IMG/VR virus record: IMGVR_UViG_3300031837_000059
Location: 1-23,142 of that record
DNA: 23,142 nt
Reading direction: 5' to 3' (one strand)
Origin: a virus
The position numbers and the translations under genes were made by a program. The first letter of the stretch is position 1. The number at the start of each line of letters is the position of its first letter. Under the pieces are notes generated by a model. The model ran no database searches. It was not told the DNA's origin and saw only the letters and a list, made by a program, of their open reading frames with translations. This document shows positions 3 through 21,345 of the stretch, piece after piece.

Positions 3-440
3 GCCACAGGTACCGTTACCTTTAGTACTGGTGTGCCGACTGCAACTCAAACTGTTACTGTTGGGTCCGAGACCTATACTTTTGTTGTTACACGTACCAC
101 TGAATATCAAGTCGCTATCGGTGCAACCAATCTTCTAACTGCAACTAATTTTGCAGCCGCAATTACGTCTGATAGTGCTCTTGTTACTTCGTCTGATACC
201 GGAGGTGTTGTTACACTAACTAGTATTCTTGAAGGTGCTGTTGGTAATTATGCTCTTGCAACTACCGGAACTAATGTTGCTGTTAGTGGTGCTGCTATGA
301 CTGGTGGTGTTAATCCTAATACTGGGTTCCGTGTTGATTGTGGTTCTACTTACTTTACTGGTCCTTTCACAGGTAATGTGTACGGACGTATTGCTAACAA
401 CTCTAATGATAAAGTTTTCGTTTCGGTGTTTGCCAATTAA
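3..440 (+). CDS. C-terminal part of a phage structural protein (5' end outside window)
   Basis: The reading frame is open to the left edge, so this is the last ~145 residues of a longer protein; the first usable start inside (GTG at 33) is probably only an internal codon. The visible part is rich in Thr, Val, Gly and Ser. It contains one copy of a beta-type module that begins near 'VTVGSETYTF', runs through an 'NFAAAI' segment and a 'GAVGNYALATTGTNVAVSG' segment, and ends 'TGGV'. Related modules recur in the proteins at 1487 and 2818. The C-terminus is a further 50 residues of likely beta structure. Position directly upstream of a head-tail adaptor suggests a virion protein such as a capsid or decoration protein, but the family cannot be fixed from this fragment. 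The stop codon overlaps the next ATG (TAATG). Confidence 0.6.
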   Translation, partial: ATGTVTFSTGVPTATQTVTVGSETYTFVVTRTTEYQVAIGATNLLTATNFAAAITSDSALVTSSDTGGVVTLTSILEGAVGNYALATTGTNVAVSGAAMTGGVNPNTGFRVDCGSTYFTGPFTGNVYGRIANNSNDKVFVSVFAN

Positions 441-1228
441 TGTCTAGCTCCCCCATTCTCACTATCATCACAGAAGCTCTTCGTGAAACTAATCTAATTC
501 CGCTTGGTGTGATCCCCACAGAGAATCAACAAGCGGAAGCCTTTACCTTGCTTCAGTCTATTGTGTCTAGTGTTCTTGGTAATGAGGTGGGGGAGAACCT
601 TAATCCAATGCCATTGGGTCAAGACAATATAACCAGTCCTGTTGGTTATCCTTGGTGGAATAACAGTCTTCCTGGTAATATGTTCATTCAGACTAATGTC
701 AGGATTATGTGTAACCTGACAGCCGAAGGATTTGTTAATCTTCACCCTAAACCACATGATGGTGCCCGTATGGGTGTTGTTGACGTTAGCGGCAACTTTG
801 GTGTGAACGAATTCACAATCTTTGGCAATGGTCGCCAGATTGAGGGTGAGAGTGAAATGACCTACAACACTCCGGGTGAAATCCGTGAGTGGATCTACCG
901 AGAAGATCTCGGTGATTGGGTTGTTGTAAGTCCACTTGATCCTAGCGGAAATATGCCGTTTCCCAGTGAATTTGATGACTTCTTTGTTATCCGTCTGGCT
1001 ATGCGCCTTAATCCGCGTTATGGTCAGATCATGCATCCGGCATCTATGGAGACCCTAAAGGAGATGACTAGTAAACTTACTGCCCGTTATAGTCAGACTA
1101 CCACACAACGTCCTGTCGAAAGTGGTCTCCTATATCTCACCCACTGGAATAGGTTCTGGGGTTATGGGGCTTATGGTCCTACCTACGGTGACCCTAATGA
1201 TATGTTTAATTCCGGGTTCCCTTACTAA
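440..1228 (+). CDS. P22 gp4-like head-tail adaptor / tail accessory protein
   Basis: 262 residues. The N-terminus ('ILTIITEALRETNLI' followed by an 'AEAFTLLQSIVSSVLG' helix) and the late helix 'DDFFVIRLAMRLNPRYG' (about 179-195) match the layout of P22 gp4-type tail accessory proteins, in which helices at both ends dock under the portal ring. Those family members are usually ~150-200 residues. The extra length is a central segment (about 85-170) with 'DVSGNFGVNEFTIFGNGRQI' and 'WIYREDLGDW', probably a beta domain. It lies immediately before the gp10-like gene, as gp4 precedes gp10 in P22. The ATG overlaps the previous stop and its own stop overlaps the next ATG (TAATG both times), indicating translational coupling. 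Role inferred: closes the DNA exit channel and extends the neck. No enzymatic motif is visible. Confidence 0.6.
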   Translation: MSSSPILTIITEALRETNLIPLGVIPTENQQAEAFTLLQSIVSSVLGNEVGENLNPMPLGQDNITSPVGYPWWNNSLPGNMFIQTNVRIMCNLTAEGFVNLHPKPHDGARMGVVDVSGNFGVNEFTIFGNGRQIEGESEMTYNTPGEIREWIYREDLGDWVVVSPLDPSGNMPFPSEFDDFFVIRLAMRLNPRYGQIMHPASMETLKEMTSKLTARYSQTTTQRPVESGLLYLTHWNRFWGYGAYGPTYGDPNDMFNSGFPY

Positions 1229-1515
1229 TGCCATACAGCCGAGGAAAAGAACGTAGAGCTGCTAAACTAGTTAAGTGGCCTGATCTTCGCTACGATCCAA
1301 ATACTGGGGTCACAAAACTATTTTATTGTGCAGAAGAAGTTCCGGTTGGCTGGGTTGAAAAAAAACCTCGTATTGTTGAAGCGCCTGTTGGAACAACCCT
1401 AGATAGAGAAGAACTTGTGTCAGAACTTTATAAAAGAGGTTTAGCAATTGATCCTCTTTGGTGCAACGCCCACATGAAGAAAGTGATTGATCTTGACATC
1501 AGTACCCATAGGTAA
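1228..1515 (+). CDS. small hypothetical virion-module protein
   Basis: 95 residues with a basic N-terminus ('SRGKERRAAKLVKW'), a 'DPNTG...CAEEVPVGW' segment and a helical C-terminus ('DREELVSELYKRGLAIDP'). I do not recognise the family. Small genes with a 'VPxGW' patch sit between gp4-like and gp10-like genes in related phages, so a neck or tail assembly role is possible, but nothing in the sequence proves it. It starts on the TAATG overlap with the preceding gene, and its last 29 bases overlap the start of the gp10-like gene. Confidence 0.55.
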   Translation: MPYSRGKERRAAKLVKWPDLRYDPNTGVTKLFYCAEEVPVGWVEKKPRIVEAPVGTTLDREELVSELYKRGLAIDPLWCNAHMKKVIDLDISTHR

Positions 1516-2821
1516 AGGTGCTTACGAGCGTCTTTACGCTGGAGCTCCGATAGTAGAACTACTTAATCGCTGGTTGGAACAAAACCCTGCCAATCTTCGG
1601 GAAGGTACTTCTGTATTAGCCCGCCCAGGTACTACACAAATTGTACCCGCATTCAACCAAGGCTCTTTTACAGGATTTGGTTCTATGCGAGGCAACTACA
1701 GTCTTAGTGGTCTTTTTGGTGGCGATCTCTTTGTTGTCTGTGGTTCTAATCTTAATCGCCTAACTGACAACGGTAATGGTACGATAACTGTCACACCAAT
1801 CACTGGGACTATAGCTGGGACAGGTTGCCCAGAAGTTGCCTGGCAAGCTGGAGCTGGTTATCAGCGTCTTTGGATTTCAGACGGACTTCTTCTACAATAT
1901 TATGCTGGTCTGTCTACTGCTAATGGTACCTTGACACTGGTTCATGCTGTTGTTGATGGTACAGACGTATTTGAAGTAGGTGGTGTGTACTACGGTTTTG
2001 GAACCACATTTAGCGGATCTGATGCTGGTACAATCACTAATCCATTTATTGTCAATCCGACTACAATCGGTACAATTCTAGACCCGCTCAATCAGGTGGT
2101 TCTCGCTGTAACTGCTACTGGCACCCCAGGTACCGATTATAGTACCACACTGACTGGACCTAATACCTTGGTCACAGCGGCAAATAATAGTGGCGTTACT
2201 CCTGCAACGTCAATACTGTTTAACGCTCTGACTGCCGGAACTGGTGGCGACACTATTACCTTCACAGTGACCTCAGGAAGCGCACTGACGGCAAGCGGTA
2301 CAGGTACCCTAGCCAATGGTGGTCTCAATGTTCTGCAGGGCTGTACAATGCCTGGAGGGGTTACACCAGGATCTATTACTCAGGTGTCTAGTTATGTACT
2401 TGTAGCCGAGTCAAATACTCAAGAATTCTTTTGGGTTGAACCTGGTAATATTACTATTGACCCACTTGACTTCGCTAGTAAGGAGAGTAGTCCCGATCCT
2501 ATTATCTGTATGAGAGCGGTTGGTGATCAGGTGATGATAATGGGCTCTAAGTCAACAGAGAATTGGTATGCTACCGGTAATCTCGCTGCACCTTTTGCGC
2601 CTATTGAAGGTCGTGTGTACGCTAGAGGAGTTATAAATGGAACCCCAGTGGTCGTGGACGATGGTGTTGTTCTGGTCGGCGATGACGGTCGAGTGTATAG
2701 TATTGGTTACCAGCCTGGCGATAGTACTGACACGCCTTGGGGTGTGAATAGAATTTCAAATAATGGTATCGAGGAAAGAGTCCGATATCAGATCAGACGA
2801 GAGGACGGACTAACCCCATGA
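1487..2821 (+). CDS. gp10-like packaged-DNA-stabilisation / tail-hub protein, N-terminal part
   Basis: 444 residues starting at TTG (an in-frame TGA lies immediately before it, and no ATG precedes the conserved start 'VPIGKGAYERLYAG'). Residues 1-150 ('IVELLNRWLEQNPANLREG', 'LARPGTT', 'YQRLWISDGLLLQYY') and 295-440 ('GSITQVSSYVLVAESNTQEF', 'TIDPLDFASKESSPDPI', 'GSKSTENWYATG', 'APFAPIEGR') match the phage gp10/'packaged DNA stabilisation' family, which forms the tail hub between gp4 and the needle. About residues 160-282 are an additional Thr/Gly-rich module. The family normally continues with a further ~190 residues ('DGHxFYVL...W.YD...TW'). Here the frame ends at 'REDGLTP', and that continuation is found 2.4 kb downstream in the gene at 5011. 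The stop overlaps the next start (ATGA). The product would need to assemble with the downstream half to make a complete hub. Confidence 0.65.
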   Translation: MILTSVPIGKGAYERLYAGAPIVELLNRWLEQNPANLREGTSVLARPGTTQIVPAFNQGSFTGFGSMRGNYSLSGLFGGDLFVVCGSNLNRLTDNGNGTITVTPITGTIAGTGCPEVAWQAGAGYQRLWISDGLLLQYYAGLSTANGTLTLVHAVVDGTDVFEVGGVYYGFGTTFSGSDAGTITNPFIVNPTTIGTILDPLNQVVLAVTATGTPGTDYSTTLTGPNTLVTAANNSGVTPATSILFNALTAGTGGDTITFTVTSGSALTASGTGTLANGGLNVLQGCTMPGGVTPGSITQVSSYVLVAESNTQEFFWVEPGNITIDPLDFASKESSPDPIICMRAVGDQVMIMGSKSTENWYATGNLAAPFAPIEGRVYARGVINGTPVVVDDGVVLVGDDGRVYSIGYQPGDSTDTPWGVNRISNNGIEERVRYQIRREDGLTP

Positions 2822-5007
2822 CAGCTTTGTGGCTAGACGGATTTGATCACTATGGTCCGGGCGGAACTGGACTAACTAATATGCTCGATGGGGCCTATGC
2901 TCAGGTTGGGGCTCAACCTGGTCCAGGTGTGCCTTCTTTTGGCGCTAGAACGGGCGAGTATGCTCTTTCAGGCACACAAGTAACCTATGAAGGTGCAAGC
3001 TATTTCGGTGGTTATCGTTATGTTCTACCCGCAAGTCAAGCGAAACTATTCGCATCTTTTGGGTTTGCAGTTAACAATCTTCCGACTAATAATTTCCTAA
3101 ATCAGATCTGTTCTTTCTGTGATAGTGGCAACAATATTATAGCCAGTTTGTTTGTTCAGTCTACTGGAGCAATTGTACTTGCAGATGCTAGTGATGATGT
3201 CCTAGCAACTACTCAAGGTCCGGTGATTGTTGCGAGTAATTGGCATCTTATAGAGTTCGAATATGATGAAACTGATCAGACATTTACACTTCGTGTTGAC
3301 GATGCTAGTGGTACTAATACACCTGCAATAGCGGCCACAGGACTTTCGTTGTCTGGATCTGTTTATCAGTTGAGACTGCTTGACGCACAAGAAGTGTCTG
3401 GTGGTCCAGCCCCTGCAGTTACGTGGATGGACGATCTATTCATCCGTAATGCTAGCGGTTCAGTTAACAATAGTTGGCTCGGTGATCGTCGTGTGACCAC
3501 AATGTTTGCAGACGCAGACACGACTACTATGGGTTGGACACCAAACTTCTACCAGAAACTTGGTGCAGGTATTCTCAATAATACTTTTGTGAGTGGTACT
3601 CAAGGAGGAGCTGCGTGGGCTAATTCTGGTACTCAGCAAAATCTTGGTTCTGGTGATTTTACTATTGAAACCTTTGTTCGCTTCAAGACTCTGCCAACGG
3701 GTGCTGGTGTGTACTCGACTATCTTTGGTAAGTGGGATGAAACTTTCAATGAGCGCAGTTATCAATTGTTTCTTGGTTCAACCGCACTGAATAATGGTAA
3801 CCTATGTTGGAGGTATTCCACTGATGGTACTACTGTTGTTGAACCCATCTCGTATCCATGGACCCCAAACCTAGATCAATGGTACAATGTAGCTATTGTA
3901 CGCGCAAGTGGGCAAGATCTCCTGTTCATTGATGGTATTCAACAAGGTCTTCCTCAGACCGACTCTGCCACCTACTTCAATAGTACTGCGATATGGCAGA
4001 TTGGTGGTAAGGCTGAAGTGCCTGGTCCGCCGACAGTTAGTACGAGTCTTGATGGATGGTTTGACGAACTTCGTCTAACTGTTGGATTTGCTAGATACAC
4101 AACAAACTTTACCCCAACTACTGTTGAATTTCCTCGTGGTTCCTCGGACCCTCACTGGGCAGATGTCGGTCTTCTCTGCGGATTTGACACAGCTATTGTG
4201 GATGAAAGTTCGTTCGCAACTGCTATGTCTGAATATGGTGCTGTACAGCAAACTGTAAGTGATGGTCCGTCAGTGGGGAACTGGTCAACTCTTGGTACGA
4301 CTAAACAAGTTCCAGACGACAACACCTTTATGTCTGCCCCATTCATTCCTGCCACAAGTGTGCTGACTGTTACTGTTAATCCTAGTAATGGCAACACCGT
4401 AACTGTTGGTACTAAAAATGGTAGCACAGCCGCTGTGTACACATTTAAAACCGCTATTACTACCGCATTTGACGTACTGATTGACACTAATATTCAGAAC
4501 AGTCTTCAGAACCTCTTCAATGCTATTAATACTGGCTCTGGCGCGGGTACTAAATATGGTACGGGAACGACCGCTAATTTTGATGTTAATGCAATACAAC
4601 TACCTGCTGGTCAAATGAAAGTAAGTGCTAACATTCCCGGTACTGGTGGTAATAGTATCGCCACATCTGTGTCTGGGATTACAGGCAGTTGGACAGGTTC
4701 CACACTAAGTGGTGGTGTCAATATTCCTGGTCCCAGTAATTTTCTGACTCAACGTCTTCCCCCGACTACCACTATCATTAGTGCTATCCAAATTAATACA
4801 CGATCATATAAGTCAGACGCTGGTGCTGGTTCGATCAATACGGCCTTCATTGGTCCGCTAGGTGGTGTGGTTACTGGTCCAACACATTCTCTTACGGTGA
4901 GTCCTGTGTACTACGGAGACATCTATGAGACTGACCCTGACACGTCTGGACCAATTTCCCCGACGACTCTCACGAGTGGTAAGATTGAGATCAATAGGGA
5001 CGCCTAA
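2818..5007 (+). CDS. ConA/LamG-domain virion protein inserted between the two gp10-like halves
   Basis: 729 residues. Residues 1-245 look like a concanavalin-A-like sandwich ('ALWLDGFDHYG' at the start, 'WHLIEFEYD', 'TWMDDLFIRNASGSVNNSWL'). Residues about 252-440 are a second, LamG/pentraxin-like sandwich ('LGSGDFTIETFVRFK', 'WYNVAIVRASGQDLLFIDG', 'LDGWFDELRL'). Residues about 514-635 carry the module ending 'TGGNSIATSVSG...WTGSTLSGGV' that also occurs in the proteins at 3 and 1487. Residues 650-729 look like the end of the first lectin domain family ('SYKSDAGAGSINTAFIGPLG', 'YETDPDTSG'). Lectin-like sandwiches on virions usually bind cell-surface sugars, so a receptor-binding or decoration role is inferred. 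It begins on an ATGA overlap and ends three bases before the next ATG. Confidence 0.6.
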   Translation: MTALWLDGFDHYGPGGTGLTNMLDGAYAQVGAQPGPGVPSFGARTGEYALSGTQVTYEGASYFGGYRYVLPASQAKLFASFGFAVNNLPTNNFLNQICSFCDSGNNIIASLFVQSTGAIVLADASDDVLATTQGPVIVASNWHLIEFEYDETDQTFTLRVDDASGTNTPAIAATGLSLSGSVYQLRLLDAQEVSGGPAPAVTWMDDLFIRNASGSVNNSWLGDRRVTTMFADADTTTMGWTPNFYQKLGAGILNNTFVSGTQGGAAWANSGTQQNLGSGDFTIETFVRFKTLPTGAGVYSTIFGKWDETFNERSYQLFLGSTALNNGNLCWRYSTDGTTVVEPISYPWTPNLDQWYNVAIVRASGQDLLFIDGIQQGLPQTDSATYFNSTAIWQIGGKAEVPGPPTVSTSLDGWFDELRLTVGFARYTTNFTPTTVEFPRGSSDPHWADVGLLCGFDTAIVDESSFATAMSEYGAVQQTVSDGPSVGNWSTLGTTKQVPDDNTFMSAPFIPATSVLTVTVNPSNGNTVTVGTKNGSTAAVYTFKTAITTAFDVLIDTNIQNSLQNLFNAINTGSGAGTKYGTGTTANFDVNAIQLPAGQMKVSANIPGTGGNSIATSVSGITGSWTGSTLSGGVNIPGPSNFLTQRLPPTTTIISAIQINTRSYKSDAGAGSINTAFIGPLGGVVTGPTHSLTVSPVYYGDIYETDPDTSGPISPTTLTSGKIEINRDA

Positions 5008-5010
5008 TGA

Positions 5011-5838
5011 ATGACAGCAGTTGTTTCTCAGCTCTCTCTACTAGGAGCTATAGACACTAATGATGGCAAACCACGAGTCAGCCAACTATCTGTACTTGCT
5101 GCTTACGGACCACCTGAAGCAAGATTTGGTTACATTTCGCAGGGAGTTCTTCTTGCAGCTATCGCCCAAGGACATAATGTGACTACTAAAGTTAGCCAAC
5201 TAACACTTCTAGGCGCATATGGTATGGGTGTGCCAAGTACTGCTAGTCAAGCAGCTTGGACATTCGTGCTTGATGGTCACCGTTTTTATGTTCTGCCGCT
5301 TGGACCTGAAGGTGATTGGGCCTACGACATGACAACCCAGGAGTGGTGCCAATTACAGACCCAAGGATTCCCTGGAATGAACTTCACTCATGGCGTTATG
5401 TGGGGTCTTCGGGTGATTGGCGGGGACGCACTTTACACCTATCTCTATGAACTTGACCCTAATCAACCCCTAGATGAACAATGGCGTGCGGTTCAACATA
5501 TGGTGACTGGTGGTATTCCAACTAGAACTCGTTCAGTCATCGGTGTGGCTAACTTCACCGTTACCGCGTCTGTGGGTCTTGAGTCTGAGGATATGGACAT
5601 TAGTCTTGCCTACAGTGATGATAATGGTATGACCTGGAGTCAAGAGTTTGACATTCCACTAACAGACGCGACTACCCAATCTCTTATTTGGAATGCGCTT
5701 GGTAGTTTCGCAGCTCCTGGTAGAGTATTCCGTATTACTGATTATAGTGGTCCTATACGACTGGACGGGGCAGATGTTGTTCTAACTGTTGGTACGGGTG
5801 CTGATAGTGGTCAAGATCAGGATGGTCAGCATAGATGA
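5011..5838 (+). CDS. gp10-like tail-hub protein, C-terminal part, preceded by VSQ repeats
   Basis: 275 residues in two parts. Residues 5-71 hold four short repeats of the type 'VSQLSLLGA' (starting at about 5, 23, 42 and 61). From about residue 78 the sequence matches the C-terminal portion expected of gp10-like stabilisation proteins: 'AAWTFVLDGHRFYVLPLG', 'DWAYDMTTQEWC', then 'MTGGIPTRTR', 'YSDDNGMTWSQEF', 'APGRVFRITDYSG'. None of the N-terminal family signature is present; that is in the gene at 1487. The two genes look like the halves of one family separated by the adhesin gene. The stop overlaps the following ATG. Expected site: tail hub, contacting fibres encoded just downstream. Confidence 0.6.
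   Translation: MTAVVSQLSLLGAIDTNDGKPRVSQLSVLAAYGPPEARFGYISQGVLLAAIAQGHNVTTKVSQLTLLGAYGMGVPSTASQAAWTFVLDGHRFYVLPLGPEGDWAYDMTTQEWCQLQTQGFPGMNFTHGVMWGLRVIGGDALYTYLYELDPNQPLDEQWRAVQHMVTGGIPTRTRSVIGVANFTVTASVGLESEDMDISLAYSDDNGMTWSQEFDIPLTDATTQSLIWNALGSFAAPGRVFRITDYSGPIRLDGADVVLTVGTGADSGQDQDGQHR
5023..5223 (+). repeat. four in-frame VSQLxLLGA-type repeats
   Basis: Within the gene at 5011, residues 5-13, 23-33, 42-54 and 61-71 read VSQLSLLGA, VSQLSVLAAYG, ISQGVLLAAIAQG and VSQLTLLGAYG, spaced 18-19 residues apart. They are diverged in DNA sequence, so they are old protein repeats, not a recent tandem duplication. Confidence 0.65.
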
Positions 5839-7928
5839 CTAAACAGCTAGGTCCTCTTGATTGGCGTATTGCTATTACCGATGGTAATGGTAGACCAACA
5901 CCCGAATTCCAACGTAGATGGGCTATCCAAAATCAGAATAATCTCCTGGTAGGGGTCACACTGGGGAACGGTCCACCGCCAATCACACCTGTTCCAGTCG
6001 ATGGACAAGAATACGTAAATACAGCTACAACTCCGTGGACTCTATACGTAAGTCAGAACGGTACGTGGACTATTGTGGGTGTGTACAAATTTACACAGTT
6101 GTCAGACGTACCGCATAACTATAGTGGTGCGGCCAACAAACTGGTTGCAGTTAATGCGGGTGCTACTGGTCTTACATTTATCGCCCCTCCAGTAATCCCA
6201 CCTCTTTTGTCCTATAATGGTCCCCCAGGGTCAGACGGCATTGACGGAGAAGATGGATGGTCAATTCCTGGTCCTCCAGGTAAGGCAGGGGTCGCTGGAG
6301 TTAGTGGTCTGTCTGGATACCCTATTCCAGGTATGGATGGGATGGATGGCGATGATGGCTGGACAATTCCTGGTCTGACCATCTCTAATCCTTGGACCAT
6401 CGGATCAGCAAAAGTGTACTCTGGTTCTGGCGCACCTGCCCCCAATTCACCTCCCGAAGGTTCTCTATATATGAGAACAGATACGGGAGTTGCATACAAC
6501 TATTTCGGCGCAGGAACCTTAGTGCCTATTGTTGTTATATTAACATCAGGGACTTCGTGGACAGTACCCTCTAATTGGGCGAGTGGTAGTAATACTATTG
6601 AATGTATTGGGGGTGGTAGTAATGGTGCCGGTTTTGCCGGTATTGGCGGCACTGGCGGTACCTACTCTAAAATTACAAATCTCGCCCTAACTGCGGGCGG
6701 GACTGTGACTTACTCTGTTGGGGCAAGTGGAGGAGGCGACACATGGTTTAATGGTACTTCTGCTTCTGTCGCTTCTGTTACCGCTCCTGGCGGTGGTTCT
6801 GCGACTACTGCGATTGGTTCTGCTATTAATTCTGGCGGTGCTGGTGTAAATGGTAGTTCGGGTGGCGGCGGCGGTGGTGGTGCTGGCGGTCCACACGGGG
6901 TTGGCGCTAGTGGTGGTTTTATCTCCGGTAGTCCTAATGGCGGCGGTGGTGGCGGCGGCGGTGGTGGTACTGCTGGCTCTAGTGGGACCGGTGGTAATAA
7001 CTATCTAGGTGCTGGTGGCGGTTCTGCCGGAGGCGCTGCGGGCACTAATGGCGGCGGCGGCGGCGGGGGTCTTAGTTTCTCCAGTGCTGGTGGTGCTGGT
7101 GGTGCGGGTGCCGAATGGGTAACTGCTGGTTCTGGTGGTGGCGGTGGTGGCGGTGGTGAAGATGAAACCGGCGGAGCTGGGGGCAACTACGGCGGTGGTG
7201 GCGGTGCTGGCGGTAATATCACAGGCGCCTTTGGTTCAGGTGCTGCCGGTGTAATTGTCATCACATATCTGATATCTGCTGCGGGAGCACTTCAGAACTG
7301 GGAACCACTATCTAATCTGACTACAATAAAGTCTAGAGGAGTTACAACAACTTCTGGAGCTCAATCCCTGAACTTTACGTCAGGTATGACTGTTTCAGAT
7401 GACGGGTTTGGTAATGAAACCGTATCTCTCTCCGTTCCATTTCAGGGTATTCCCGGCATGGACGGAGCAGATGGCGACGATGGGTGGTCTATCCTCGGCC
7501 CCGCTGGTCCTGTAGGCGCTACTGGCGCGACCAGGGTCTCGGGCTATCCCATTCCGGGGATGGACGGAACTGATGGCGATGATGGATGGCCAATTCCTGG
7601 TCCTCCTGGCCCAGTAGGTGCAACAGGACCTTCTGGCGGATTTACAGGTACATATCACACCGTAACCGGGTCAAGGTCTGTTGGCACCACATACACAAAC
7701 TCTACTGGTAATGTTATGTTCATAGCCGTTACATTCTATCAATCCGGCGGCGCTGGCGTGACTTTGGAGATGGAGATAAATGGCGTTGCGGTCAATGCTG
7801 AAACAACCACCGTCGCCGGTGGATATAATAAGACATTATACGGATTTGCTAATCCCGGCGACACATATGCCGTTATCCAGTTTGGCGCCGGTACTATTGT
7901 TCAAAATGGCTGGGTTGAACGCTACTAA
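5835..7928 (+). CDS. tail fibre with glycine-rich and collagen-like domains
   Basis: 697 residues. The N-terminus ('LGPLDWRIAITDGNGRPTPE') resembles fibre attachment regions, followed by a 'VYKFTQLSDVPHNYSGAANK' linker. Four acidic collagen-like stretches of the type 'IPGMDGxDGDDGW' or 'GPPGSDGIDGEDGW' lie at about 129-150, 163-182, 538-556 and 572-593. A glycine-rich domain spans about 235-478, opening 'TSGTSWTVPSNW' and closing 'GAAGVIVITY', with runs of up to nine consecutive glycines. This pattern is common in phage adhesins and is compatible with packed polyglycine-II helices as known for some T-even tip adhesins. The C-terminus (600-697) is a compact beta domain and a plausible receptor-binding head. 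It directly follows the hub half gene. Confidence 0.75.
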   Translation: MTKQLGPLDWRIAITDGNGRPTPEFQRRWAIQNQNNLLVGVTLGNGPPPITPVPVDGQEYVNTATTPWTLYVSQNGTWTIVGVYKFTQLSDVPHNYSGAANKLVAVNAGATGLTFIAPPVIPPLLSYNGPPGSDGIDGEDGWSIPGPPGKAGVAGVSGLSGYPIPGMDGMDGDDGWTIPGLTISNPWTIGSAKVYSGSGAPAPNSPPEGSLYMRTDTGVAYNYFGAGTLVPIVVILTSGTSWTVPSNWASGSNTIECIGGGSNGAGFAGIGGTGGTYSKITNLALTAGGTVTYSVGASGGGDTWFNGTSASVASVTAPGGGSATTAIGSAINSGGAGVNGSSGGGGGGGAGGPHGVGASGGFISGSPNGGGGGGGGGGTAGSSGTGGNNYLGAGGGSAGGAAGTNGGGGGGGLSFSSAGGAGGAGAEWVTAGSGGGGGGGGEDETGGAGGNYGGGGGAGGNITGAFGSGAAGVIVITYLISAAGALQNWEPLSNLTTIKSRGVTTTSGAQSLNFTSGMTVSDDGFGNETVSLSVPFQGIPGMDGADGDDGWSILGPAGPVGATGATRVSGYPIPGMDGTDGDDGWPIPGPPGPVGATGPSGGFTGTYHTVTGSRSVGTTYTNSTGNVMFIAVTFYQSGGAGVTLEMEINGVAVNAETTTVAGGYNKTLYGFANPGDTYAVIQFGAGTIVQNGWVERY
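6219..7613 (+). repeat. collagen-like acidic repeats flanking a (GGN)n glycine-rich tract
   Basis: The fibre gene has two pairs of collagen-like repeats: 6219-6284 with 6321-6380, and 7446-7503 with 7548-7613. Between them the DNA is dominated by GGC/GGT codons, densest from about 6858 to 7218. The GGN tract is prone to slippage and recombination, giving length variation of the fibre. Confidence 0.7.
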
Positions 7929-16841: not shown

Positions 16842-18734
16842 TTATATTACCTCGCAATAGCCCGAAGAGCAAGCGTACTCTTGGGAGCCTGTTGTGTTGT
16901 CTTCTTGTTCGTAGGTCTTTAGCAAATCCCAATCGATCTGCTTGGGCATCCTACTTACCCATTCGTTGTATTGTTCTTCTGTGATCTCTTGGTAGGGAGC
17001 CTGTCGATAGGTGTGTTCAGAATAGGGTAGAAAAGCCACACCAGAAAGAATATCGAAATTATCCCACACCCAAGATCCCACACCAATCCATTCATTTTCT
17101 TTTACATTCACCGTTATACTGGGTTTATGTTCACACCAATGTTCTTGGACATTACGCCAGATTTCAAGGTGCTCGATTGCAGTGATATCCGACCTGCACA
17201 AACTAGCATCTGGGCTTGCGATGGGGAAAGAGAAGACAGCCGTATGGTCTGGGTTTGTGACATCTGGTTCAAAGGGTACACCTTGGTCAATTAGGAATGT
17301 GGTTAGCGGATCTTTTACATCTCCTCGTACCGTCCTAATATAAAAAGGACTATGCCGAGGGTGAATGCCAGAACTACTGTCCACCAACTGGGAGACGGTA
17401 CCTGAAGGCTTAACACAAGTAATAGCCACAGACTGCTGAATACCAAGAGTAGTAGCCAGATTCTTATTTGTTGCAACTGCTATCTCCCGAAGGCGTTGGA
17501 GCCACAGACAACCTTCACCAGTTCGTCCGAGGATTGGGTGGTCGAGGATTCCGGTAAGGCTAACGCCAAGTAGACGTTCTTCTTCTGTATTTTTCCGCCA
17601 GCAACGTCTGAGATACGCAAACTGAGTAAGAGTGGACTGAAAGGTCCCAAGAATGGTGGCCAGTCGCACTTTTCGTTCCAGGTCTGACAAGTTATCTCCA
17701 GATCGTACAACGACTTCAGTGAGGTTACAGAACTGATTAGGTCGAAGAATGATCTCGCTGCAAGGATTAGTCCCGTACTCGAAAGAGACATCTCGTCTGG
17801 CATTTCGACTAGCTTGTCGCACGCTTGCCTTACGGTTGAATATCCCTCGCTCCCCACTTTTACTGTCGTATAGAGATTGCCACTCTCGTAGGAATTCTCC
17901 GACGGATGGTTTTCCCAAGTACACCGCGCTGTTATTAGATAGACCTCGTTGTCCATTCTGCTCCCACCAAGCTCCGTGCTTTGCCTGCCTTGCTCCTTCA
18001 TCACTTAGATCGCTTAGACTGATCATGGCTGACCGTCTTACACCACCGACAACAACAACCTCTGCAATCTTACACAAAAGATCGTGGCACTCTAGCGACG
18101 ATAGTTGCCTTCCTCGGGCTCGATTACAAACTTCTGTAGCATAAGTAAATAACTCGACAAGCGGCTCAGGTCCGCTAGCACGACCCCCAAAAGTCTTGAG
18201 TCGAGCGCCTGCAGGCCGTACTCGCGAAACGTCCCATCCAGGTGTGTAACCCTCAAAGAGGTAACTGAGGAGGGTTCTAAGGGCTGATGCCCACCCTTCC
18301 TTACTGTCTGGTACTGTGACAATTGGTTGATCTTGTCCACCAATAGTTTCTCCGATGGTTGGAAGTTGATCCACATATTTCTTTTCCACGCTGAAACCAA
18401 CACCAGTCCCACAAAGTAGGATGTACATGGCCTCATCGAAGGCGCGTAGGTTGTCAACTACAAGATAAGCACAATTATAACCAGCTACGTGAGTCCTGTC
18501 AAGAGCTGGACCAGCAGTCATAAGACATCTCATTGATGGCATGACTTCTAGATTAATTATCGCATCTTCAATTTCAAGCCATTCTTTTGAACCTAGAGAA
18601 CCACCTTTGGTGTAAAGCATCATCCAATCAATATAGCGTCGGACAGTTTCTTCCCAGGTTTCTCGTCGGTTCTCATCAGGTATCCACCTAGCGTAGCGAC
18701 TTGTGTGTATAAATCTTTGATAATCAGTTAGAAT
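16842..18734 (-). CDS. nrdJ: adenosylcobalamin-dependent (class II) ribonucleoside-triphosphate reductase
   Basis: Makes deoxyribonucleotides from ribonucleotides using a B12 coenzyme radical. Numbered from the ATG at 18623, C51 ('YNCAYL') and C299 ('FCNLTEV') are the likely redox pair. C288 and E290 in 'GTNPCSEI' are the thiyl-radical cysteine and catalytic glutamate. The tail 'CSSGYCEVI' supplies the CxxxxC shuttle pair that re-reduces the active site. 'LLCGTGVGFSV' and 'VKPSGTVSQLVDSSSG' are further family blocks. Conserved N-terminal sequence ('SRYARWIPDENRRETWEETV') continues in frame upstream of that ATG, but no ATG, GTG or TTG exists before the in-frame stop at 18753-18755. An ATT at 18734 lies 7 bases after a perfect AGGAG, so I set the start there (630 residues). 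Lactobacillus-type enzymes have ~740 residues, so this is a compact phage form. Confidence 0.9.
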   Translation of the reverse strand: MLTDYQRFIHTSRYARWIPDENRRETWEETVRRYIDWMMLYTKGGSLGSKEWLEIEDAIINLEVMPSMRCLMTAGPALDRTHVAGYNCAYLVVDNLRAFDEAMYILLCGTGVGFSVEKKYVDQLPTIGETIGGQDQPIVTVPDSKEGWASALRTLLSYLFEGYTPGWDVSRVRPAGARLKTFGGRASGPEPLVELFTYATEVCNRARGRQLSSLECHDLLCKIAEVVVVGGVRRSAMISLSDLSDEGARQAKHGAWWEQNGQRGLSNNSAVYLGKPSVGEFLREWQSLYDSKSGERGIFNRKASVRQASRNARRDVSFEYGTNPCSEIILRPNQFCNLTEVVVRSGDNLSDLERKVRLATILGTFQSTLTQFAYLRRCWRKNTEEERLLGVSLTGILDHPILGRTGEGCLWLQRLREIAVATNKNLATTLGIQQSVAITCVKPSGTVSQLVDSSSGIHPRHSPFYIRTVRGDVKDPLTTFLIDQGVPFEPDVTNPDHTAVFSFPIASPDASLCRSDITAIEHLEIWRNVQEHWCEHKPSITVNVKENEWIGVGSWVWDNFDILSGVAFLPYSEHTYRQAPYQEITEEQYNEWVSRMPKQIDWDLLKTYEQEDNTTGSQEYACSSGYCEVI

Positions 18735-19288: not shown

Positions 19289-19397
19289 CCCAGTTCCTTT
19301 TGGGTTTCTGTCGTTGTTGTTTAGGTAGTTTCAGATCCTTATCAAAGTGATTCTGCCTACGCTGTCTTCTACGATCCTTAAGATCGAACTTGTTCAT
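19248..19397 (-). CDS. possible 49-residue basic protein
   Basis: Short frame from the ATG at 19397 to a TGA at 19250-19248 that fills the only gap between the DUF4406-like and nucleotidyltransferase genes, overlapping each by 20-40 bases. The product is highly basic in its first 35 residues ('KFDLKDRRRQRRQNHFDKDL', 'KLPKQQRQKPKRNW') and acidic at its end ('SETLDEIDL'). Such a peptide could bind nucleic acid. An AAGGG lies very close (one base) to the ATG, which is poor spacing, so translation would rely on coupling to the upstream stop. No family recognised; it may be a chance frame. Confidence 0.35.
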   Translation of the reverse strand: MNKFDLKDRRRQRRQNHFDKDLKLPKQQRQKPKRNWDGERSETLDEIDL

Positions 19398-19731
19398 ACC
19401 CTTGCTCAACGTCGTACTCCGATAGTTCCCAAATCTTGAGGCTAAGGAATTTAGCTAGTGCCACTTCTGCCGCAACCCCTTTTGACTTCTGCCACCCAGG
19501 AAGAAGAGCAATTGCGTCCGCTTCATTTGCAATATAATTGAGATCATCCATAATCATACAACGCATAACCTTACCATCAAGTTCTAGTTTATCATAACCT
19601 TTTTGGCGATCATTATCCGCTGGACTAAAAACTTCATGTCCATGTTTTCTTAGTGTCAGGGCAGCCATATCAAAGGCTGGAAAGTTAAACTCTGGAATGC
19701 CTCTCATAGGGCCAGCTAGGTAGACGTTCAT
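19378..19731 (-). CDS. DUF4406 / nucleoside 2-deoxyribosyltransferase-like protein
   Basis: 117 residues from the ATG at 19731, which has GGAG five bases upstream; an in-frame GTG at 19764 lacks a ribosome binding site and would add eleven unconserved residues. The start 'MNVYLAGPMRGIPEFNFPAF', the 'EVFSPADND' strand, and 'ADAIALLPGWQKSKGVAAEV' with E89 in the place of the catalytic glutamate match the DUF4406/nucleoside 2-deoxyribosyltransferase-like fold. True transferases swap bases on deoxyribosides; phage DUF4406 members are mostly untested and may hydrolyse or remodel nucleotides. It lies among nucleotide-pool genes, consistent with salvage or base remodelling. The 3' end overlaps the small basic ORF. 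Confidence 0.7.
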   Translation of the reverse strand: MNVYLAGPMRGIPEFNFPAFDMAALTLRKHGHEVFSPADNDRQKGYDKLELDGKVMRCMIMDDLNYIANEADAIALLPGWQKSKGVAAEVALAKFLSLKIWELSEYDVEQGYEQVRS

Positions 19732-19759
19732 TGGTTCTCCAATATTTCGAATAACCAAT
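19730..19759 (-). promoter_or_regulatory. inverted repeat around the ribosome binding site of the DUF4406-like gene
   Basis: On the minus strand ATTGGTT and AACCAAT form a 7-bp stem with a 16-base loop. The GGAG sits at the end of the loop and the right arm runs into the ATG at 19731. It could modulate initiation. It lies in the only sizeable untranslated stretch of the right arm (19732-19824), in which I see no convincing promoter. Confidence 0.3.
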
Positions 19760-19824
19760 ACCACAATATTTGGTTTGGTTCTATATTTTTATGCCGGAAA
19801 TAAGCATAACTACTCGTCCAATAA

Positions 19825-20297: not shown

Positions 20298-21002
20298 TCA
20301 AACCTTCTTTCTGGCGCCTGTATGCCAAGAACCACAGTCAATGCACTGAAGTCGTTGTACTTTAAAAAACTTCGTCCTTCGAAATCCTCTAGATTGTACA
20401 TGATTACTCCCACAAGCTCCACAAGCTCCCTTGTTATCCCCAAGATGCGGGTGATCTTGAATGAAAGGTTTAATTCGCTGATAGAGATTAGCAGTTACCT
20501 TGACATCCTGAATACAATACTTCTGCATCCGCTTCTGGGCCTTGACATCGCCTTCAAGAACAGACCGCCAGAGTGCAAAGCCTTCATGCTTCATCTTAGA
20601 TCCAACACCAAGTAAGGGGCCAATATAAGCCAACTTGGCCATCACAAATCCCAAGCCTTTTACGGTCTTAATCAAATCGATAGAGGTAGGTGGTGCAAAA
20701 GGTTTCAAACCCTCAAGCATTAGATGGCCTTTAATCTTAGGCAAATCATATCGATTGCCGTTGTAAGTAATTACAGCGTCTGCCTCATCAAGAAGATTGC
20801 GAAGAACATATGCCATGTCTGTTGCACCATACTCCCACTTAGAGAGGAAGATGAACTCTTTAGAGCCAACCCAATGAGCACAGAAGCAGAGAAGACCGCC
20901 GCTATCAATCAACTGATCAGGACTAATATTCTCATCATACATCCGCCAGACATAAGCCTTGGCAGGTGCCCATTCGATATCTATAACTAGGATTTTACTC
21001 AT
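20298..21002 (-). CDS. DEDDy 3'-5' exonuclease (RNase H-like fold) with C-terminal zinc ribbon
   Basis: 234 residues from the ATG at 21002, chosen because AGGAG lies seven bases upstream and the product begins directly with the first exo motif; a longer frame to 21155 would add 51 unrelated residues that overlap the endonuclease gene. D8 and E10 ('VIDIEW') form motif I, 'YNGNRYDLPKI' (N81, D86) motif II, and 'YCIQDV' (Y162, D166) motif III, the DEDDy set of two-metal exonucleases. Residues 194-223 carry CGACG...QCIDCG (C194, C197, C220, C223), a zinc ribbon probably for DNA contact. No polymerase domain follows, so this is a stand-alone exonuclease, suited to recombination or end processing beside endonuclease I. 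Its start overlaps the end of the endonuclease gene. Confidence 0.75.
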   Translation of the reverse strand: MSKILVIDIEWAPAKAYVWRMYDENISPDQLIDSGGLLCFCAHWVGSKEFIFLSKWEYGATDMAYVLRNLLDEADAVITYNGNRYDLPKIKGHLMLEGLKPFAPPTSIDLIKTVKGLGFVMAKLAYIGPLLGVGSKMKHEGFALWRSVLEGDVKAQKRMQKYCIQDVKVTANLYQRIKPFIQDHPHLGDNKGACGACGSNHVQSRGFRRTKFFKVQRLQCIDCGSWHTGARKKV

Positions 21003-21345
21003 CAATCCACTCCTGGGGTACGACACCAACGGCCCACTTGTAGCCGTTCCGGTCTGCCCACTTCTCGTGGGTCTGCTTCTGAAAGGGAACTTTCTTGTTG
21101 GCCTCCATAAATAGGAAGCGAATGTCATGATCAGGATATTGTTTACGTACCGCAATCATCTTGCGAATACTCTCCCGATCTAGTCTACCTTTGACTTCGA
21201 TAATAATTCCGTTGTCTAGTATGAAGTCTGGATGATAAATTCCGTTTAAAGTGTAAGGAAGTTCCAAAGTCTCGTAGGTATATTTCACCCCACGAGACCT
21301 TAGATTGGCATCGACCGTGCGCTCGAAGCCTGACTTAAAAGCCAC
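20995..21345 (-). CDS. T7-type endonuclease I (Holliday-junction resolvase)
   Basis: 116 residues. Cleaves branched DNA so that replication intermediates can be packaged. The match to T7 gp3 runs end to end: 'FKSGFE', 'YETLELPY', 'YHPDFILDNGIIIEVKG', 'QYPDHDIRFLF', 'VPQEWIDE'. E8, D40, E50 and K52 correspond to the catalytic E20, D55, E65 and K67 of T7, with identical D-E-K spacing (10 and 2). It lacks the basic C-terminal tail of the 149-residue T7 protein and a few residues in front. It uses a GTG start overlapping the endolysin stop (TAGTG) without a clear ribosome binding site, so translation is probably coupled. A dimer is expected, as in T7. Confidence 0.85.
   Translation of the reverse strand: MAFKSGFERTVDANLRSRGVKYTYETLELPYTLNGIYHPDFILDNGIIIEVKGRLDRESIRKMIAVRKQYPDHDIRFLFMEANKKVPFQKQTHEKWADRNGYKWAVGVVPQEWIDE

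What the first reader, a model, noticed from the sequence alone, without database searches (positions are those of the whole stretch)
1487..5838. A gp10-like tail-hub gene split in two by a 2.2-kb adhesin-like gene
The N-terminal family signature of the packaged-DNA-stabilisation/tail-hub protein is in 1487-2821 and the matching C-terminal portion is in 5011-5838 from about residue 78, with a complete 729-residue ConA/LamG gene between them. Each junction is a clean ATGA or near-adjacent stop/start, not a ragged frameshift. A hub made of two chains with an adhesin gene lodged between them would be an unusual tail architecture and would fix adhesin stoichiometry next to the hub genes.
Basis: partly seen in the sequence, partly recalled or inferred. 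Interest (0 to 1): 0.72.

Follow-up and report, generated by a model that had tools for sequence, protein, structure and literature searches.

The report
Phage tail hub split around adhesin
In a large group of uncultivated short-tailed phages, the gene for the tail hub (one protein in every cultured relative found here) is always cut in two at the same place, and the gap nearly always holds a fast-changing, lectin-like gene that probably helps the phage grip its host, so the hub seems to have become a mounting slot for exchangeable adhesins.

Summary
The products of 1487-2821 (N) and 5011-5838 (C) tile one hub family, PHROG 578 (P22 gp10), without overlap: profile 3-277 and 287-466. Both predicted folds have the same best PDB matches (Pan3, Pam1, P22 and Sf6 hubs). 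In 12 near-complete genomes these two ORFs are the only gp10 copy. About 100 distinct viral contigs, down to about 30% identity, share the same break and form one clade against single-chain gp10 (SH-aLRT 99). The 80 best loci for a single-chain query are all unsplit. No cultured phage with the split was found. The gap is never empty in a locus that can be judged: it holds a phrog_2448-type gene (with a LamG insert in this sub-clade), tandem copies of it, or an adhesin-like domain fused to C. Between close relatives N and the C core can stay about 95% identical while the middle gene and C's first ~80 residues fall to 50-65%. Best reading: a conserved two-chain tail hub whose break site is a slot for a hypervariable receptor-binding module. 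The split is the norm for this clade; nothing shows that it sets adhesin stoichiometry. N-C assembly and adhesin docking remain unproven. New variant of a known kind.

The parts
440..1228 (+). Probable tail adaptor (gp4-like) gene just upstream of the hub
   Evidence: Profile of 11 relatives matches Pan3 and Pam1 adaptor chains weakly (E 0.002 and 0.008); position matches the adaptor-gp10 order of Pan3 and DSL-LC05
1228..1515 (+). Small ORF (95 aa) overlapping the start of N; no tblastn hit in several relatives
1487..2821 (+). N chain of the split gp10/Hc3 hub (most of the beta-propeller); likely start TTG 1493
   Evidence: PHROG 578 profile 3-277; Pan3 and Pam1 hub chains by profile; AF2 pLDDT 84 and Foldseek best hits Pan3, Pam1, P22 gp10
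1940..2338 (+). Domain of about 130 aa inserted in N relative to single-chain hubs; related to a domain of the middle gene
   Evidence: The profile gap between positions 136 and 274 maps to a single point (residue 118) of the Pan3 hub; cross-matches of the A profile 502-646 to N of relatives
2818..5007 (+). Middle gene A: phrog_2448-type protein with LamG insertion, probable receptor-binding adhesin
   Evidence: phrog_2448 at residues 4-242, E 2.4e-14; LamG PF13385 at 263-420; profile-profile match to the core A family, E 7e-45; fastest changing of the three
3604..4077 (+). LamG/ConA-like domain inside A; absent from core-A relatives
4696..5004 (+). C-terminal domain of A, shared with core-A genes and kept in the A-C fusion of L024/L069
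5011..5838 (+). C chain of the split hub
   Evidence: PHROG 578 profile 287-466; Pam1 hub residues 367-434, E 4e-11 for the chain; Foldseek best hits are the same hub chains as for N
5011..5256 (+). Repeat-bearing prefix of C (four VSQ-type repeats in this phage), absent from single-chain hubs, hypervariable
   Evidence: Alignment A2; prefix median 85 aa over 63 loci; low AF2 confidence at residues 1-74; prefix identity falls together with A
5835..7928 (+). Downstream glycine-rich/collagen-like tail-fibre-like gene, the second variable island

Best explanation
The podovirus tail hub (P22 gp10, PHROG 578, called tubeB or nozzle in other phages) was split once, in the ancestor of a large phage clade, at one loop of its beta-propeller. 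SHOWN: the two ORFs tile the family, fold like it, are under purifying selection and are the only copy in 12 near-complete genomes. INFERRED: N (most of the propeller) and C (end of the propeller plus the C-terminal beta-sandwich) associate as two chains into the usual six-fold hub below the adaptor. SHOWN: the break is always occupied by a phrog_2448/LamG gene or by an adhesin-like domain fused to C, and this segment plus the repeat prefix of C is hypervariable while both hub parts are conserved. INFERRED: the break site is a docking slot, where the C chain's prefix holds receptor-binding protein A on the hub, so that adhesins can be changed without disturbing the DNA channel. Translation as separate chains is indicated by stop codons, overlaps and ribosome-binding sites, not by fusion.
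For: Tiling of PHROG 578 and of the solved Pam1 and Pan3 hub chains. The same six hub chains appear at the top of both Foldseek lists. In 12 near-complete genomes phrog_578 matches just two ORFs, with profile breaks at 277-294 and 281-289 and no other copy. 106 distinct loci split and 7 intact; all 104 split rows in the tree form one clade, SH-aLRT 99. Control: 80 of 80 loci found with a single-chain query are one ORF of 468-559 aa without gene A. No split locus that can be judged has N followed directly by a plain C: A alone, tandem A (L127, L144), A core fused to C (L024/L069), or an unrelated 370-420 aa extension on C (L064, L070, L095, L101); the only apparent exception, L140, is cut at the contig start. 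N and C distances correlate, Mantel r 0.90. dN/dS N 0.03-0.09, C 0.09-0.19. Variable island: L129/L130 N 0.96, A 0.64, C prefix 0.52, C core 0.95; nucleotide profile falls at the A start and recovers at the C core. No read-through: TAA-TGA-ATG here; A-to-C frame offsets 37/18/40; TAA in 77 of 95.
Against: No direct evidence that N and C bind each other or that A is in the virion; no cultured member and no proteomics. AF2 of C alone is modest (pLDDT 72, pTM 0.50), Foldseek TM-scores are 0.28-0.45 because each model is part of a fold, and the complex could not be predicted. A's function rests on a LamG domain, on its variability and on one cultured homologue annotated as putative tail fibre. The variable island could partly reflect relaxed selection rather than receptor-driven change. 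The loci were found with split-clade queries, so the counts are not a census.
Confidence: 0.77

Rival explanations
1. Two-chain hub, but the middle gene is a passenger: an insertion of a mobile or auxiliary tail gene at a tolerated site, with no physical link to the hub beyond gene order.
For: phrog_2448-type genes occur in long-tailed phages without gp10-type hubs nearby (Tetraselmis virus S20, Sphingomonas phage Lucius), so the gene is portable. Gene order alone does not prove contact.
Against: The slot is never empty in the loci that can be judged, and where A is missing an adhesin-like domain is fused to C; A core is itself fused in frame to C in L024/L069. A and the C prefix diverge together.
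Confidence: 0.17
2. The hub is made as one polypeptide after all, by programmed frameshift, stop read-through or protein splicing that joins N, A and C.
For: A and C lie in the same frame in this window and in 37 of 95 loci; one relative has A and C in one ORF.
Against: TAA followed by in-frame TGA before the C start; TAA stops in 77 of 95 loci; all three frame offsets occur; ribosome-binding-like sequence before A in many core-A loci; no splicing domain found in the family searches.
Confidence: 0.03
3. N or C has lost hub function (degenerate remnant) and another protein supplies the hub.
For: The C chain alone is short, and its prefix is poorly modelled.
Against: dN/dS 0.03-0.19 for both parts, invariant residues across 50-59 diverse sequences, both parts in every near-complete genome tested and no other phrog_578 copy.
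Confidence: 0.03

Closest known systems
P22 gp10 / Sf6 hub / Pam1 and Pan3 hub (PHROG 578, head closure Hc3)
   Same: Profile, predicted fold, gene position after the adaptor and before the ejection genes, sole copy
   Different: Two chains instead of one, an extra domain of about 130 aa in N, a repeat prefix on C and an adhesin-like gene between the halves
T7 gp12 and SU10 nozzle
   Same: Beta-propeller hub; N-terminal strands pack with the C-terminal platform; domains inserted between blades; fibre dock on the hub (PMC6702177, PMC9509320)
   Different: Inserted domains are in cis within one chain; here the chain is broken and the adhesin has its own gene
Dual tubeA (adaptor) arrangement of Sulfitobacter phage phiGT1
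   Same: A clade-wide rebuilding of a podovirus tail hub discussed together with tail-fibre number (PMC10386132)
   Different: There the adaptor is duplicated and gp10/tubeB is not described as split in the passages read; here gp10 itself is split
phrog_2448 proteins (e.g. Sphingomonas phage Lucius putative tail fibre)
   Same: Gene A core matches the family nearly full length in core-A relatives
   Different: In this sub-clade A carries LamG and a further inserted domain and sits inside the hub gene

Membership tests
gp10 / head closure Hc3 (PHROG 578) | Sequence profile match over the family length | tested here: met
   N 3-277 plus C 287-466 of 486 positions; 12 of 12 genomes
gp10 / head closure Hc3 (PHROG 578) | Hub fold | tested here: met
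   Foldseek best PDB hits for both halves are Pan3, Pam1, P22 and Sf6 hub chains
gp10 / head closure Hc3 (PHROG 578) | Podovirus head-neck gene context | tested here: met
   TerL, portal, scaffold and major head protein upstream in the identical contig L004; DNA-ejection family match downstream
gp10 / head closure Hc3 (PHROG 578) | Single polypeptide | tested here: not met
   Two ORFs in 106 distinct loci, so filed as a split variant of the family, not as an ordinary member
gp10 / head closure Hc3 (PHROG 578) | Hexameric ring below the adaptor in the virion | not testable with these tools
   Needs complex prediction or cryo-EM
LamG / ConA-like (PF13385) | Profile match above the curated cut-off | tested here: met
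   35.1 bits against 27.6, residues 263-420 of A
LamG / ConA-like (PF13385) | Glycan binding | not testable with these tools
   No binding data; needs an experiment
phrog_2448 | Profile match over the family length | tested here: met
   Window A 4-242 on profile 3-214 of 335, E 2.4e-14; core-A relative L121 on 1-327 of 335

The most novel reading that the evidence does not exclude
The break in the hub is a dedicated adhesin dock: the repeat prefix of the C chain, projecting from the propeller at the break, binds the adhesin encoded between the hub halves, so that receptor-binding modules are exchanged inside the hub gene while the DNA channel is kept. I know of no solved podovirus tail with such a fibre-docking arrangement.
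Probability: 0.45. Interest if true: 0.72.

Novelty: new variant of a known kind. Interest (0 to 1): 0.62.

Why it matters
gp10-type hubs close the DNA channel and pass on the signal to eject, and every cultured or solved relative found here has them as one chain. A widespread clade with a stable two-chain hub and a hypervariable adhesin gene in the break points to a different way of joining receptor binding to the channel gate. It also gives a simple marker: general libraries leave the halves and the gene between largely unnamed (Pfam and NCBIfam do not call either half), so hub and probable adhesin of many environmental phages can now be named.

Tried and rejected
Assembly artefact: rejected, four identical contigs and about 100 distinct ones. 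Read-through or frameshift fusion: rejected from stop codons and frames. Extra intact copy elsewhere: none in 12 near-complete genomes. Cultured phage with the split: none by tblastn with N, C or core-clade N and C. Host assignment: the genome-contig scan gave L148 (a 46-kb phage-like contig in a Patescibacteria MAG, split too) and a short weak match, L149; binning makes that host doubtful. VSQ repeat outside the clade: no match in phages at E 1. Extension in L064 etc. as a diverged A: not supported, hhalign probability 0.5%. Literature: no report of a split gp10 found in the open-access library; most subscription-journal papers and bioRxiv preprints are not held.

Full report
CHECK OF THE OBSERVATION. 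The three ORFs exist at the stated places. PHROG 578 (head closure Hc3, the family of P22 gp10) matches the 1487-2821 product over profile positions 3-277 and the 5011-5838 product over 287-466 of 486; they tile the family with a small gap and no overlap. Profiles of either half find the same solved single chains, Pan3 stabilisation protein (9vyg) and Pam1 hub (7eeq): N maps to Pam1 residues 2-81 and 125-244, C to 266-305 (weak) and 367-434. AlphaFold models built on 50 and 59 relatives (pLDDT 84 and 72) have as best Foldseek hits the hub chains of Pan3, Pam1, P22 and Sf6; for C those six chains are the only matches with E up to 0.001. TM-scores are low (0.28-0.45) because each model is only part of a fold. 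The chance explanation is excluded.

SIDE CORRECTIONS. The N start is probably TTG 1493, aligned with ATG/GTG in relatives. The middle protein A is not simply ConA/LamG: residues 4-242 and the last ~100 are a phrog_2448-type core, into which a LamG domain (263-420) and a further beta-sandwich-like domain are inserted. N also carries an insertion of about 130 residues, between positions that are adjacent in the Pan3 hub.

DISTRIBUTION. Scans of IMG/VR gave 106 distinct loci with N and C in separate ORFs and 7 unsplit ones, the latter cultured or distant phages. The split loci break at the same profile position. On a tree of N plus C core, all 104 split rows form one clade against the single-chain hubs (SH-aLRT 99; quick search, long outgroup branches), with a mostly LamG-bearing sub-clade of 33 rows that includes this window's sequence and a core-A sub-clade of 71. 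As a control, the 80 best loci for a single-chain query are all one ORF of 468-559 aa with no A gene in the stretch held. The 50,697 cultured-phage records gave only single-chain relatives where checked. In 12 near-complete genomes of 41-51 kb PHROG 578 matches these two ORFs and nothing else, so the split pair must supply the hub. These counts come from queries inside the clade and are not a census.

WHAT SITS IN THE BREAK. No split locus that can be judged has N followed directly by a plain C (the one apparent case, L140, is cut at the contig start). The break holds A with LamG; core A (about 360 aa); tandem A (L127, L144) or A with a decaying second copy (L206); A core fused in frame to C in one ORF with the LamG part gone (L024/L069); an unrelated 370-420 aa extension fused to the front of C and no A (L064, L070, L095, L101; weak beta-propeller signals); A followed by a C with a 330-aa tail-fibre-like extension (L199); or A plus further genes including a tail-fibre-like one (L097). 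C itself begins with a prefix (median 85 aa) that single-chain hubs lack, with four VSQ-type repeats in this phage.

VARIABLE ISLAND. In 25 pairs of close relatives mean identity is N 0.87, C core 0.90, A 0.72, C prefix 0.68; in L129/L130 0.96, 0.95, 0.64 and 0.52. Along the DNA of L129 against L138, identity is 82-92% in N, falls to 39-57% at the start of A, climbs to about 70%, returns to 87-94% at the C core and falls again in the gene downstream. dN/dS is 0.03-0.09 for N, 0.09-0.19 for C and 0.08-0.25 for A in the pairs where it could be computed; the script stopped at an ambiguous base after eight pairs. N and C distances correlate at 0.90, N and A at 0.72. Two conserved hub parts thus enclose a variable adhesin-like island, as expected of a receptor-binding module.

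TRANSLATION. A-to-C frame offsets are 37/18/40 and stops are mostly TAA; in this phage TAA and an in-frame TGA precede the C start; many core-A loci have a GGAG-like site before A. Separate chains are much likelier than read-through or frameshift.

MECHANISM. From T7 gp12 and the SU10 nozzle (PMC6702177, PMC9509320): the hub is a hexamer of beta-propellers whose N-terminal residues add strands to a C-terminal platform sandwich and whose blades accept inserted domains; in T7 fibres sit between hub and adaptor docks. The C model here has strands that fit the end of a propeller followed by a beta-sandwich, and the conserved first 50 residues of N are poorly modelled without C, which fits two chains completing one fold. 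I infer that N and C assemble into the usual hub, that the break lies at a propeller loop, and that the C prefix mounts A there. Shown: tiling, fold, sole copy, conservation, one clade, occupied slot, variability. Inferred: N-C binding, A in the virion, A docking on the prefix, receptor binding.

COMPARISON AND NOVELTY. It works like a gp10/nozzle hub and belongs to PHROG 578 by sequence, fold and context, but fails the single-chain feature, so it is a split variant. phiGT1's dual adaptor (PMC10386132) is the nearest described rebuilding of a podovirus hub. I found no report of a split gp10 in the open-access library; papers outside it were not searchable.

Noticed in passing
window 3-440, 1940-2338 and within 2818-5007 (A residues ~510-630): A related beta-sandwich-like domain seems to recur in N, in A and, in relatives, in the gene before the adaptor (L048, L052 matches to A 499-629); the window's first ORF looks alike by eye.
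   Followed up: partly
window 5835-7928: The fibre-like gene after C shares only its N-terminal part with relatives and is a second variable island; it carries collagen-like and glycine-rich stretches.
   Followed up: partly
L037 4253-6434: The middle gene is broken by a frame change between residues ~329 and ~348; sequencing error or real disruption was not resolved.
   Followed up: no
L097 3447-5746: Extra ORFs between A and C, one matching a tail-fibre family (phrog_863) and Gly_rich_2, so the slot can hold several genes.
   Followed up: partly
L206 1528-3181: A truncated A (189 aa) next to a full A in the slot, as after tandem duplication and decay.
   Followed up: no
L148: A 46-kb phage-like contig with the split hub is binned in a Patescibacteria MAG; host doubtful because of binning.
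   Followed up: no
window 16842-18623 (-): A phage ribonucleotide reductase (phrog_367, E 1e-163), near a nucleoside 2-deoxyribosyltransferase-like gene (19378-19764) and a DNA polymerase exonuclease subunit (20298-21155).
   Followed up: no
window 1228-1515: Small ORF between adaptor and N with no tblastn hit in several relatives (e.g. L012, L016, L017); role unknown.
   Followed up: no
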